Part shown: one piece after another, positions 10,482 through 12,481 of the stretch
How the letters are laid out: each line of letters opens with the position of its first letter
How positions within the stretch are numbered: the first letter of the stretch is position 1
Assembly (NCBI GenBank): GCA_902615975.1
Contig: CACMRC010000003.1
Location: forward strand, 1-57,832
Source of the DNA: an uncultured Pelagibacteraceae bacterium
GTDB taxonomy: Bacteria; Pseudomonadota; Alphaproteobacteria; Pelagibacterales; Pelagibacteraceae
Direction of reading: 5' to 3'
Length of the DNA stretch: 57,832 bases
Notes under the pieces: model-generated
Seen by the model: the letters and a program-made list of their open reading frames with translations, nothing else
Told to the model about the DNA's origin: nothing
Databases searched by the model: none
Made by a program: the position numbers and the translations under genes

Positions 10482-10940
10482 TTAGTTTCTAGCTATATTT
10501 TTACTGTTTAATTTATGTAACTCTATTACAGTTGGATTTTGTGCTGAATGCGGATGTTCATTTCCTGCATAAATTTTTAATTTTGTTAATTGTTTTCTCC
10601 CCAATACTCCACCAGGTAACATTCTTTTAACTGCCATTTTTAAAGTTTCTCCAGGTTTTTTTTCATGAAGTTTCTCAGGTGTTATAACTTTAATTCCACC
10701 TGGATGACCAGTGTGTCTGTAATATTTTTTATCTTGAAATTTTTTTCCAGTAAATTTTGCTTGTTCAATATTTTTAACAACAACAAAGTCACCATCATCC
10801 ATATGAGGTGTGTATGTAGTTTTGTTCTTGCCTCTTATGATATTGGAAACAACAGTCGCTAATCTTCCAACTACTGCATTCTTCGCGTCTATTTCATACC
10901 AATTTGAATTTAATTGGTCTTTTTTAGTGAATTTTGTCAT
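10482..10940 (-). CDS. rplM: 50S ribosomal protein L13
   Basis: A 152-residue L13, an early-assembling large-subunit protein that binds 23S rRNA domains II and VI. Recognised by WYEIDAKNAVVGRLATVVSN, RGKNKTTYTPHMDDGDFVVV, YYRHTGHPGGIK, and MLPGGVLGRKQLTKLKIYAG followed by HPHSAQNP. The length matches the family. It is the first gene of a minus-strand run (rplM-rpsI-argC-lipoprotein-hom-AEC-EamA). Its upstream region is shared with the divergent riboswitch-controlled metY gene (212 bp between the start codons). No clear Shine-Dalgarno sequence precedes the ATG. Confidence 0.97.
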   Translation of the reverse strand: MTKFTKKDQLNSNWYEIDAKNAVVGRLATVVSNIIRGKNKTTYTPHMDDGDFVVVKNIEQAKFTGKKFQDKKYYRHTGHPGGIKVITPEKLHEKKPGETLKMAVKRMLPGGVLGRKQLTKLKIYAGNEHPHSAQNPTVIELHKLNSKNIARN

Positions 10941-10991
10941 TGTGCGAGGATTAATACTATTAATAATTACAAAGTCAATTTTATATTTAGC

Positions 10992-11019
10992 TTGAAATAT
11001 GTAGCTTATATGCTAGAAA
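10992..11019 (+). promoter_or_regulatory. Candidate metY promoter
   Basis: A sigma-70-like pair sits just ahead of the first riboswitch: TTGAAA (10992-10997) and, 16 bp on, TAGAAA (11014-11019) preceded by an extended TGC. A start about 6-7 bp downstream would begin the transcript at or just inside the 5' strand of the first aptamer. Both boxes are imperfect, so this is a position-supported guess. Confidence 0.35.
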
Positions 11020-11023
11020 TCAC

Positions 11024-11066
11024 TTGCCGATTTGATCCTATTGCGGGCATATAACTGCTAAAAAGG
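11024..11066 (+). ncRNA. SAM-II riboswitch aptamer upstream of metY
   Basis: Matches the SAM-II (metA-type) aptamer. The P1 stem is TGCC (11025-11028) with GGCA (11046-11049). Between them lies a 17-nt loop running from GATTTGAT to TATTGC, close to the loop I remember for the published SAM-II RNA (GAUUUAACC..UAUUGC) and of the same length. The strongly conserved 3' element GCTAAAAAGG is at 11057-11066, forming the pseudoknot side. S-adenosylmethionine binding is expected to lower expression of the downstream methionine gene. It lies about 27 nt before a second, distinct SAM aptamer. Identified by eye; no covariance model was run. Confidence 0.82.
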
Positions 11067-11090
11067 AAATTTCATAAAATTAATAAAATC

Positions 11091-11148
11091 GGTAGGCATT
11101 TGAACTGTATTGTGCGCCTAACATAATGTTGAAGCACTAAAAAAGGAG
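11091..11148 (+). ncRNA. SAM-V riboswitch overlapping the metY ribosome binding site
   Basis: P1 is TAGGC (11093-11097) with GCCTA (11116-11120). The loop between contains ATTTGAACTGTATTG and ends in GTGC (11112-11115), which can pair with GCAC (11134-11137) to make the pseudoknot. The 3' conserved CACTAAAAAAGGAG runs straight into the Shine-Dalgarno GGAG (11145-11148), four bases before the metY ATG. Ligand binding would stabilise the pseudoknot beside the ribosome binding site and repress translation. This arrangement fits SAM-V, described from Pelagibacter and marine metagenomes ahead of sulfur and methionine genes. Confidence 0.85.
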
Positions 11149-11152
11149 TAAA

Positions 11153-12481
11153 ATGACTAAAAAAAGAAATAACCCTGAAACTATTGCCATACATGGTGGT
11201 GACTATAGGAGTGATCCAGCGACGAACGCGGTAGCTGTTCCAATTTATAGAACAACATCATACCAATTTAACAACACAGAGCACGCTGCTAACCTTTTCG
11301 CTCTTAAAGAATTTGGTAACATATACACCCGTATAATGAACCCTACAAATGATGTCCTGGAAAAAAGAGTTGCCGCTCTTGAAGGAGGTCTGTCATGTGT
11401 AACTGTATCTTCAGGTCAAACCGCTTCAACGTTTGCTGTATTAAATGTAGCCCAAGCCGGTGATAATATAGTTAGCTCAACCGATCTTTATGGTGGAACA
11501 GTATCTTTATTCACACATACGCTTAGTAAACTTGGTATAGAGATAAGATATGCAGATCCAAGTAATCCTGAAAATTTTGAAAAGTTAATAGATGATAAAA
11601 CTAGAGCTTTTTATGGTGAAACTCTACCCAATCCATATTTAAGAGTCTTTCCAATAAAGGAAGTTTCTGACATTGGAAGAAAATATAATATACCATTAAT
11701 CATGGATAACACAGCAGCACCAGTAATATGCAAACCGATTGAACACGGAGCTGCAGTAGTAATTCACTCACTTACAAAATATATCGGTGGGCATGGTACA
11801 GCAGTTGCAGGAAGTATAGTTGATAGTGGTAATTTTGATTGGACTGCAGATCCTAAGAGACAACCATTATTTAACGAACCAGATGCAAGTTATGGTGGTG
11901 TTGTTTGGGGAAAAGCTGTACCGGAATTAACTGGTGCTAATGTTCCCTTTGCTGTTAGAGCAAGAGTTTGTTTATTGAGAGACTTGGGATCAGCTCTAGC
12001 TCCAGATAATGCTTTTGCAATAATTCAAGGACTTGAAACGGTTGCTTTAAGAATGAGACAACATTGTGCTAACGCCGAGTATGTTGTTGATTTTCTTAAA
12101 AAACATAAAGAAGTTACAAAAGTTATTTATTCTACAGAGCACGATAAACCCATTGCCGATAGAGCTAAAAAATATCTTAAAGGTGGAAATGGACCAATGA
12201 TTGGTATCGAACTTAAAGGTGGAATTGAAGCTGGTAAAAAATTTATCGAGTCTTTAAAAATGTTCTATCACGTAGCTAATATTGGTGATGCTAGAAGTTT
12301 AGCAATTCATCCAGCAAGTACAACTCATAGTCAATTAAATGAGAAAGAACTAGCTGCATCAGGTGTTACCCAAAGTTACGTAAGACTTTGTATCGGTATT
12401 GAACACATTGATGATATTATTGAGGATCTTGATCAAGCATTGAATAAATCTTCAAAGGGTAATTTAAAAGCTGTAAGCTAA
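11153..12481 (+). CDS. metY: O-acetylhomoserine sulfhydrylase (thiol-lyase)
   Basis: A 442-residue PLP enzyme of the Cys/Met metabolism family that makes homocysteine, or methionine if methanethiol is used, from O-acetylhomoserine. Features are the N-terminal IAIHGGDYRSDPATNAVAVP, YTRIMNPTNDVLEKRVAALE, the PLP-contact segment STDLYGGTVSLF, and the Schiff-base Lys in HSLTKYIGGHGTAVAG. The C-terminal SLAIHPASTTHSQL is the family signature. At about 430-440 residues it fits MetY rather than the shorter cystathionine gamma-synthase (about 380-400). Two stacked SAM riboswitches precede it, so expression should fall when S-adenosylmethionine is plentiful. Confidence 0.95.
   Translation: MTKKRNNPETIAIHGGDYRSDPATNAVAVPIYRTTSYQFNNTEHAANLFALKEFGNIYTRIMNPTNDVLEKRVAALEGGLSCVTVSSGQTASTFAVLNVAQAGDNIVSSTDLYGGTVSLFTHTLSKLGIEIRYADPSNPENFEKLIDDKTRAFYGETLPNPYLRVFPIKEVSDIGRKYNIPLIMDNTAAPVICKPIEHGAAVVIHSLTKYIGGHGTAVAGSIVDSGNFDWTADPKRQPLFNEPDASYGGVVWGKAVPELTGANVPFAVRARVCLLRDLGSALAPDNAFAIIQGLETVALRMRQHCANAEYVVDFLKKHKEVTKVIYSTEHDKPIADRAKKYLKGGNGPMIGIELKGGIEAGKKFIESLKMFYHVANIGDARSLAIHPASTTHSQLNEKELAASGVTQSYVRLCIGIEHIDDIIEDLDQALNKSSKGNLKAVS

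What the first reader, a model, noticed from the sequence alone, without database searches (positions are those of the whole stretch)
11024..11148. Tandem SAM-II and SAM-V riboswitches before metY
Two different SAM-binding pseudoknot aptamers lie head to tail. The first (11024-11066) has the 17-nt SAM-II loop and GCTAAAAAGG. The second (11091-11148) has P1 TAGGC/GCCTA and pseudoknot GTGC/GCAC running into the Shine-Dalgarno. The second can only act on translation by its position; the first may act on transcription or processing. Stacking two classes for one ligand could give a two-level or cooperative gate. The class pairing is known from literature on SAR11-like sequences; what each member does in cells is less clear.
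Basis: partly seen in the sequence, partly recalled or inferred. Interest (0 to 1): 0.75.

Follow-up and report, generated by a model that had tools for sequence, protein, structure and literature searches.

The report
Cryptic second SAM sensor before metY
In SAR11 ocean bacteria the RNA leader of a methionine-making gene holds, just ahead of its known SAM-V riboswitch, a second conserved element that is predicted to sense the same metabolite and would likely work with it through one shared switch, and the papers I could read list only the known one there.

Summary
SAM-V at 11085-11151 scores 81.1 bits (cut-off 41). The upstream element, 11026-11066, scores only 14.0 bits for SAM-II (cut-off 36), but the published bhmT SAM-II of HTCC1062 is as low (15.5). 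It is real: of 153 SAM-V loci taken on SAM-V alone, 132 have its 5' half upstream and all 132 also carry GCUAAANNGG; in the unranked census, 15 of 24. It precedes metY and mmuM in the genome that I take, by coordinates, for HTCC1062; two readable papers list SAM-V only there. It is not the published SAM-II/SAM-V tandem: no terminator is found between the aptamers. Instead the linker ends in a complement of the element's 5' strand, flush against SAM-V P1, in 128 of 128 such metY leaders and 0 of 20 SAM-V leaders without the element; mmuM leaders differ (0 of 4). A conserved promoter puts the predicted mRNA start at P1. Likely, SAM binding would undo this helix, so both aptamers share one translational platform; mRNA stability is the main rival. 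Ligand binding, start site and sign of coupling are untested. New variant of a known kind.

The parts
10482..10940 (-). rplM (L13), divergent neighbour; the 212-nt gap to metY has the same length and neighbours as listed for HTCC1062
   Evidence: TIGR01066 177.2 bits, cut-off 93.05; gap; HTCC1062 table in PMC2704228 passages
10992..10997 (+). predicted -35 (TTGAAA)
   Evidence: T/T/G at -34/-33/-32 from the G of GCC in 99/88/81% of 186 metY-class leaders; letters; not listed by the consensus scan
11011..11019 (+). predicted extended -10 (TG, then TAGAAA 11014-11019)
   Evidence: T -15 85%, G -14 82%, T -12 86%, A -11 91%, A -9 86%; best TATAAT match starts at -12 in 107 of 186; letters
11026..11026 (+). 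predicted transcription start, first G of the SAM-II-like P1
   Evidence: inference from the promoter spacing and -1 T in 81%; no measured start
11026..11066 (+). SAM-II-like compact aptamer: P1 11026-11028/11046-11048, L1 GATTT 11029-11033, CC 11037-11038/GG 11065-11066, GC 11043-11044/GC 11057-11058, UAAA 11059-11062
   Evidence: Rfam sub-threshold
11086..11093 (+). 3' strand of the competing helix H_alt (AAATCGGT), complement of 11026-11033, flush with SAM-V P1
11085..11151 (+). SAM-V riboswitch with its translational platform (AGGAG 11144-11148)
   Evidence: 81.1 bits; letters
11153..12481 (+). metY, O-acetylhomoserine sulfhydrylase
   Evidence: TIGR01326 574.3 bits, cut-off 495.1

Best explanation
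The metY leader holds a SAM-V riboswitch and, 18 bases upstream of its Rfam match, a compact SAM-II-like element that is predicted to bind SAM and that likely acts without a transcription terminator, by giving up a helix (H_alt) between the predicted 5' end of the mRNA and the base of SAM-V, so that both elements would work through SAM-V's single translational platform. Step 1 (inferred): RNA polymerase starts at the first base of P1. Step 2 (inferred): with little SAM, the 5' strand GCCGAUUU pairs with AAAUCGGU in the linker once that is made, which takes the L1 'third strand' out of the SAM pocket and seats an 8-bp helix against SAM-V P1. Step 3 (inferred): with SAM bound before the linker is made, P1 and the pseudoknot hold that strand and the linker stays free. 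Step 4 (inferred, sign uncertain): the helix holds the leader in the ON state and its absence lets SAM-V close over the ribosome site, so metY would be shut only when both aptamers are filled. Shown: both elements, their conservation, the competing complementarity before metY, and that no terminator-like site is found. Not shown: SAM binding by the first element, the start site, which conformer forms in the cell, and the sign of coupling. My confidence is about 0.9 for a SAM-II/V-type aptamer, 0.75 for H_alt as its competitor, 0.4 for coupling through SAM-V.
For: SAM-V. Upstream element conserved: 132 of 153 SAM-V loci, 132 of 132 of these with GCUAAANNGG, 3-bp P1 closing in 131 of 131 with two changed forms, ACC/GGU and GCU/GGC; 15 of 24 in the unranked census of 61 genomes. 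Core letters equal the SAM-II consensus core GAUUUG, UUGC, GCUAAA (alignment). H_alt: with no linker letters imposed, YGGY stands flush before SAM-V P1 in 128 of 128 metY leaders with the element (103 of 103 distinct linkers; 102 also keep the T that pairs with A5) and in 0 of 20 SAM-V leaders without it (a stricter pattern on a larger set gave 169 of 185). The predicted fold pairs CC with the linker in 116 of 124 leaders (200 of 620 with shuffled linkers); duplex mean -11.5 against -5.3 kcal/mol. Starting at the predicted first base: 155 of 186 (180 of 930 shuffled), window 5.9 kcal/mol better than with the strand held open. No terminator-like site in the window leader; six or more T in a row in 4 of 132 linkers. 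Conserved promoter spacing. Copies before metY and mmuM in what I take to be HTCC1062.
Against: Covariation does not prove H_alt: its 5' strand hardly varies, and 49 of 500 shuffles reach the observed score. The apparent extension of H_alt into SAM-V P1 shows no covariation (opposite the P1 A: T 135, A 27), and those bases may not be transcribed, so H_alt may only abut SAM-V P1 rather than block it; stacking could even help SAM-V fold. Partition-function runs showed no general rise of SAM-V P1 when the 5' strand is held (rise over 0.2 in 28 of 172 metY-class and 0 of 19 mmuM leaders, fall in 4 and 1), though they cannot model pseudoknots. mmuM leaders lack the flush form (0 of 4; 1 of 12), pair in other registers or not flush, and only 2 of 4 predicted folds have H_alt. 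Five mmuM leaders keep the element where Rfam finds no SAM-V (L049, L087, L091, L099, L134), so it may have an output of its own. The HTCC1062 metY linker itself has a run of six T. In the bhmT tandem the linker blocked SAM-II and no synergy was seen in vitro (PMC11508383).
Confidence: 0.42

Rival explanations
1. The upstream element works on mRNA abundance: H_alt buries the 5' end of the mRNA and keeps it stable at low SAM; SAM binding would open it, expose the A/U-rich linker and let RppH and RNase E start decay, while SAM-V separately controls translation.
For: Predicted start at the first base of P1 and a complement that ends with the partner of that base, T or C in 128 of 128 metY leaders. 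In HTCC1062 under sulfur limitation metY mRNA rises 7.14-fold and protein 2.24-fold, and mmuM mRNA 6.08-fold, although these leaders are listed as translational SAM-V (PMC5069961 section 6). The window's genome has RNase E/G (322 bits) and an RppH-like protein (194.8 bits, cut-off 116). Element kept in five mmuM leaders without a detectable SAM-V.
Against: The complement sits flush against SAM-V P1 while linker length varies from 24 to 34 nt, which hints at a SAM-V partner. mRNA changes can follow from blocked translation alone (general knowledge).
Confidence: 0.27
2. The helix stacks on SAM-V P1 and helps SAM-V fold, so the first aptamer, when it binds SAM, weakens the second; the pair would then widen or shift the response rather than sharpen it.
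For: Flush adjacency in 128 of 128 metY leaders; in HTCC1062 metY the predicted fold has H_alt directly beside SAM-V P1.
Against: Two repressors of one gene for one ligand working against each other is a less economical design; no direct data.
Confidence: 0.12
3. Two independent modules: the SAM-II-like element acts on transcription through Rho or pausing, SAM-V on translation, and H_alt is only the apo fold of the first.
For: The published bhmT tandem is read as two separate levels (PMC9481103 passages).
Against: No terminator-like site; linker of 24-34 nt with 15% C. The H_alt strand is conserved only where the element is present.
Confidence: 0.12
4. The upstream element has changed its ligand and gives a two-input gate.
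For: Compact P1, and R1 scores SAM-II and SAM-V copies about equally.
Against: The core letters are those of SAM-II (alignment) and it precedes genes already under SAM control.
Confidence: 0.04
5. Vestigial or chance sequence.
For: Rfam score below threshold.
Against: 132 of 132 conservation of the 3' half; same score range for the published bhmT SAM-II.
Confidence: 0.02

Closest known systems
[quoted passage not shown] Pelagibacter ubique bhmT (bi-mechanism type)
   Same: Same order, same predicted ligand, same lineage; the bhmT leader of HTCC1062 was read here.
   Different: bhmT SAM-II is followed by a hairpin and nine T before SAM-V, 63 nt on the count that gives 33 nt in the window and 30 in HTCC1062 metY; the review states a terminator for all 120 original examples. 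The metY leader has a 3-bp P1, no terminator-like site and a 5'-strand complement.
SAM-V riboswitch of metY, RF01826 (structure PMC6061858, passages seen)
   Same: The downstream aptamer is this one.
   Different: The passages I saw treat metY as SAM-V alone; here an upstream aptamer precedes it.
SAM-II riboswitch, RF00521 and RF01726
   Same: H-type pseudoknot with GAUUU, UUGC, GCUAAA core and a CC/GG pair.
   Different: P1 of 3 bp at the predicted mRNA start; below both gathering scores; loop UAUUGC close to SAM-V.
Cooperative tandem aptamers with one expression platform (glycine riboswitch)
   Same: Two aptamers for one ligand before a single platform, in my reading.
   Different: The review defines that type by highly similar aptamers; here two types are mixed, and no cooperativity is measured.

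Membership tests
SAM-V (RF01826) | Score above the curated gathering threshold over the whole model | tested here: met
   81.1 bits, cut-off 41, model 1-66 of 66
SAM-V (RF01826) | P1 and P2 pseudoknot with the ribosome site just 3' of P2 | tested here: met
   TAGGC/GCCTA, GTGC/GCAC, AGGAG 11144-11148
SAM-V (RF01826) | SAM binding | not testable with these tools
   cited for HTCC1062 metY with KD 15 uM (PMC5069961 passages)
SAM-II (RF00521 / RF01726) | Score above the curated gathering threshold | tested here: not met
   14.0 of 36 and 13.4 of 44 bits; the published HTCC1062 bhmT SAM-II has 15.5, so the threshold misses it too; filed as SAM-II-like only
SAM-II (RF00521 / RF01726) | P1 plus pseudoknot with core GAUUU / UUGC / GCUAAA | tested here: met
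   132 of 132 with GCUAAANNGG not imposed, P1 closes in 131 of 131; in the 68-leader alignment 100% of cells pair, but the pattern that picked those rows imposes part of the letters
SAM-II (RF00521 / RF01726) | SAM binding | not testable with these tools
   needs in-line probing or SHAPE
Bi-mechanism SAM-II/SAM-V tandem | Intrinsic terminator after the SAM-II aptamer | tested here: not met
   0 terminator-like sites in 10930-11200; T6 or longer in 4 of 132 linkers and 9 of 186
Bi-mechanism SAM-II/SAM-V tandem | SAM-V downstream at the ribosome site | tested here: met
Cooperative aptamers with one platform | Ligand binding at one site changes affinity at the other | not testable with these tools
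   no binding data
Cooperative aptamers with one platform | Highly similar aptamers | tested here: not met
   R1 gives at most 15.9 bits on SAM-V copies against 57-67 on its own kind in Pelagibacter

The most novel reading that the evidence does not exclude
SAR11 metY mRNAs that carry SAM-V mostly begin with a hidden second SAM aptamer whose first bases either close its SAM pocket or clamp the mRNA's own 5' end onto the base of SAM-V: a heterotypic two-aptamer riboswitch with one output, overlooked in the model strain HTCC1062.
Probability: 0.4. Interest if true: 0.8.

Novelty: new variant of a known kind. Interest (0 to 1): 0.6.

Why it matters
SAR11 are abundant ocean bacteria with few protein regulators (general knowledge), and sulfur limitation in HTCC1062 acts on exactly these genes. 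metY and mmuM mRNAs rise 6-7-fold there although their leaders are listed as translational SAM-V switches (PMC5069961 section 6). An overlooked upstream aptamer would give a testable reason, and would turn the metY leader, source of the SAM-V crystal structure, into a two-aptamer system whose first half is not annotated there in the papers I could read.

Tried and rejected
A longer P1 in the window (the ATATGC before the element with GCATAT): broken in L004 (GGGCTTAT) and others, and upstream of the predicted start; rejected.

H_alt as direct strand invasion of SAM-V P1: the window allows 11 bp, and 137 of 173 anchored leaders overlap P1 by at least one base, but without covariation, and the bases -1 to -3 are probably not transcribed. 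Demoted. In one search the anchor imposed [CT]GG, so its 173 of 173 for the CC and G4 pairs is circular; only the outer pairs there inform, and repeats the flush test with no linker letters imposed.

Covariation proof of H_alt: not obtained (49 of 500 shuffles reach the score; one double change, C-G to U-A in L024). A hunt for more 5'-strand variants gave 2 of 399 and 1 of 399 genomes.

Partition functions with the 5' strand held: not decisive, pseudoknots are not modelled. Gene labels are rough in three scripts: genes are told apart by Shine-Dalgarno letters and three mmuM leaders stayed unanchored; by translated motifs; the mmuM label failed, so its 186 leaders are metY and mmuM together. 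Shuffle controls shuffle single bases of the linker and keep its last six.

Promoter scan tool: does not list the promoter that I infer from conservation. Viral contigs: 0 matches. Of the 153 SAM-V loci, 129 come from the top of a score-ranked, cut list, hence the separate 24-locus census, whose filters also lose some weak matches. Only 184 of 399 genomes of the genus gave a SAM-V match; metY leaders without SAM-V were not looked at. Of 70 leaders chosen for alignment A2 two (L087, L091) were dropped for lack of a clear SAM-V. L149 (cut by a contig end; it has GCTAAAATGG and the flush YGGY) was left out of the 20 leaders without the element. L139 (Treponema) was left out of the model and leader sets.

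Print check: searches; passages of PMC2704228, PMC5069961 (plus section 6), PMC9481103 and PMC6061858; abstract and sections 3, 4 and 8 of PMC11508383. Poiata et al. 2009, the primary SAM-V paper, is not held, so it may mention the element.

Full report
OBSERVATION. Rfam finds SAM-V over its full length at 11085-11151 with 81.1 bits (cut-off 41). The upstream element, GCC GATTTGATCCTATTGCG GGC ... GCTAAAAAGG at 11026-11066, scores 14.0 bits for RF00521 (cut-off 36) and 13.4 for RF01726 (cut-off 44). These scores alone would not support a SAM-II riboswitch, but the bhmT SAM-II of HTCC1062, whose SAM binding is cited with KD 1.2 uM (PMC5069961 passages), scores 15.5, and SAM_alpha was listed for 5 of 10 other SAM-V leaders, at 19.8-23.1 bits. 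The Rfam threshold thus misses the SAR11 copies tested here.

CONSERVATION. RF01826 was searched in 61 genomes (own plus relatives): 19 hold 24 SAM-V loci. Of these 24, 15 have the upstream element (11 metY, 4 mmuM), 5 have by eye a classic SAM-II with hairpin and T-run, and 4 metY leaders have SAM-V only. In 399 genomes of the genus, 184 have SAM-V; 129 further loci were read from the top of that ranked list (29 new loci and 100 stretches). Of all 153, 132 have the 5' half of the element within 90 nt upstream (128 metY, 4 mmuM) and 132 of 132 have GCTAAA and NNGG after it, which was not imposed. The 3-bp P1 closes in 131 of 131 with a full 5' strand: GCC/GGC 129, ACC/GGT 1, GCT/GGC 1. Of the other 21, 14 have a T-run of seven or more; two metY leaders (L236, L270) look like a classic SAM-II with a shorter T-run; four are SAM-V only; one is cut by a contig end. 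An exact pattern scan of named genomes met its limit at 120 loci, 119 of them titled Pelagibacteraceae, Pelagibacterales or Ca. Pelagibacter and one Treponema.

HTCC1062. A model of the element (R1, 45 rows) run on the own and 22 nearly complete genomes of the genus hits 11 of 23. One, G816, is a single contig of 1,308,759 bases with hits at 1005763-1005804 (+) and 732863-732904 (-). Meyer et al. 2009 list HTCC1062 intergenic regions 1005679-1005890 (metY, SAM-V) and 732778-732938 (mmuM, SAM-V) (PMC2704228 passages). I therefore take G816 to be HTCC1062. Both leaders were read and hold the element, with complements in the linker. The same paper counts two SAM-II riboswitches in HTCC1062, and PMC5069961 places them at bhmT and metX (passages). 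In the papers that I could read, the copies at metY and mmuM are thus not described; the primary SAM-V paper is not held.

NO TERMINATOR. The bhmT leader of HTCC1062 shows the published logic: GCTAAAGCG, then a hairpin containing CGCTTTAG and nine T, then SAM-V, 63 nt on my linker count. The review says that SAM-II always precedes a terminator in the original 120 tandems (PMC9481103 passages). The window linker has 33 nt and no terminator-like site. Six or more T in a row occur in 4 of 132 linkers and in 9 of 186 in the larger set; HTCC1062 metY has such a run.

COMPETING HELIX. The linker ends in AAATCGGT, the complement of GCCGATTT, which is P1 5' strand plus L1 of the first aptamer. With no linker letters imposed, YGGY stands flush before SAM-V P1 in 128 of 128 metY leaders with the element (103 of 103 distinct linkers), in 0 of 4 mmuM leaders with it, and in 0 of 20 SAM-V leaders without it; a stricter pattern on a larger set gave 169 of 185 and, for mmuM, 1 of 12. 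The predicted fold uses the pairing in 116 of 124 leaders against 200 of 620 with shuffled linkers; mean duplex energy is -11.5 against -5.3 kcal/mol, and 116 of 124 are in the best 5% of their own shuffles. With the RNA begun at the predicted first base the figures are 155 of 186 against 180 of 930, and the window gains 5.9 kcal/mol. The base opposite G1 is T (159) or C (14) in 173 anchored leaders, never A or G. mmuM leaders use other registers or positions, for example GATCAAAT against ATTTGATC in L027 and a TTGGT not flush with P1 in L014 and L023. Formal covariation is not significant because the 5' strand is nearly fixed; sliding the register lowers paired cells from 85.5% to 48.3% at most, but the structure was read from these sequences. 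H_alt and the SAM pocket cannot form together, because both need the same bases; that follows from the sequence. Which one forms in the cell is inference.

START OF THE mRNA. Over 186 metY-class leaders T/T/G stands at -34/-33/-32, TG at -15/-14, T, A and A at -12, -11 and -9, and T at -1, counted from the G of P1; the best TATAAT match starts at -12 in 107 of 186, and in 8 of 17 mmuM leaders. This is the spacing of a sigma-70 promoter starting at that G (general knowledge). No start site was measured, and the consensus scan lists other matches instead.

MECHANISM. My reading: a SAM-II-like aptamer at the mRNA's 5' end competes with H_alt. With SAM absent, H_alt forms and abuts SAM-V P1; with SAM present it does not. 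Since SAM shuts these genes, I expect H_alt to mark the ON state and SAM-V to close only when the first aptamer is filled. The sign is uncertain: stacking of H_alt on SAM-V P1 could help SAM-V instead, and the partition-function test was not decisive. The main rival is control of mRNA stability at the 5' end: metY mRNA rises 7.14-fold and protein 2.24-fold, mmuM mRNA 6.08-fold under sulfur limitation (PMC5069961 section 6), RNase E/G and an RppH-like protein are encoded, and five mmuM leaders keep the element where Rfam finds no SAM-V at E<=1. Riboswitches that act on mRNA levels besides translation are known in E. coli, through Rho or RNase E (PMC11487190 passages). In the bhmT tandem the linker blocks SAM-II in vitro and no synergy was seen (PMC11508383, sections read), which both parallels H_alt and warns against assuming cooperation.

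CLASS OF THE FIRST ELEMENT. R1 scores 57-67 bits on this kind, 44.5 on a Treponema copy that runs into a Shine-Dalgarno, 31.5 on what looks like a short-P1 SAM-II with terminator in another alphaproteobacterium (L291), 8-16 on SAM-V copies and 9-14 on classic SAR11 SAM-II copies. It is therefore a compact relative near both named classes, and I call it SAM-II-like for its core and short P2. In the class-wide search 9 of 386 genomes had a match.

VERDICT. What is new is the arrangement: no terminator found, a competing helix, predicted at the very start of the mRNA, and present in most SAM-V-bearing SAR11 metY leaders examined, including what I take to be HTCC1062. It is a new variant of a known kind; function untested.

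Noticed in passing
L049, L087, L091, L099, L134 (mmuM leaders): The SAM-II-like element stands before mmuM where Rfam finds no SAM-V at E<=1; L087 looks by eye like a diverged SAM-V, in L134 a complement of L1 (GATCAAAT) is kept, in L099 the start codon is 27 nt after the element.
   Followed up: partly
L139, minus strand 1728-1771: Treponema sp. UBA1747 holds the motif with P1 GTCC/GGAC and GCTAAAAAGGAGG running towards an ATG: a compact SAM-II-like element apparently on the ribosome site (R1 44.5 bits).
   Followed up: partly
L291 1501-1545: What looks like a SAM-II with short P1 (TTGCC/GGGCAA) followed by a hairpin and a T-run in another alphaproteobacterium, a possible link between this element and classic SAM-II.
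   Followed up: partly
L274 1501-1575 (own genome C1:62584-62658, minus strand): The window's genome has one other SAM-II candidate (RF01726 32.9 bits, cut-off 44; RF00521 25.2 bits, cut-off 36); the downstream gene was not tested.
   Followed up: partly
L311 161-213, minus strand: Rfam's SAM_V model weakly matches the upstream element of HTCC1062 mmuM (19.8 bits, E 9.3), in line with a form near both SAM-II and SAM-V.
   Followed up: no
window 10984-10989: A block at -42 to -37 from P1 (consensus TATTTA) is conserved in 70-92% of 186 leaders; it may belong to the divergent rplM promoter region.
   Followed up: no
L003, L191, L252 (classic SAM-II/SAM-V leaders): A similar 24-codon reading frame (MNLTLLLERY.. 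type) follows SAM-V at the usual start distance before the main gene; L177, L187, L192, L201 lack an ATG frame there.
   Followed up: no
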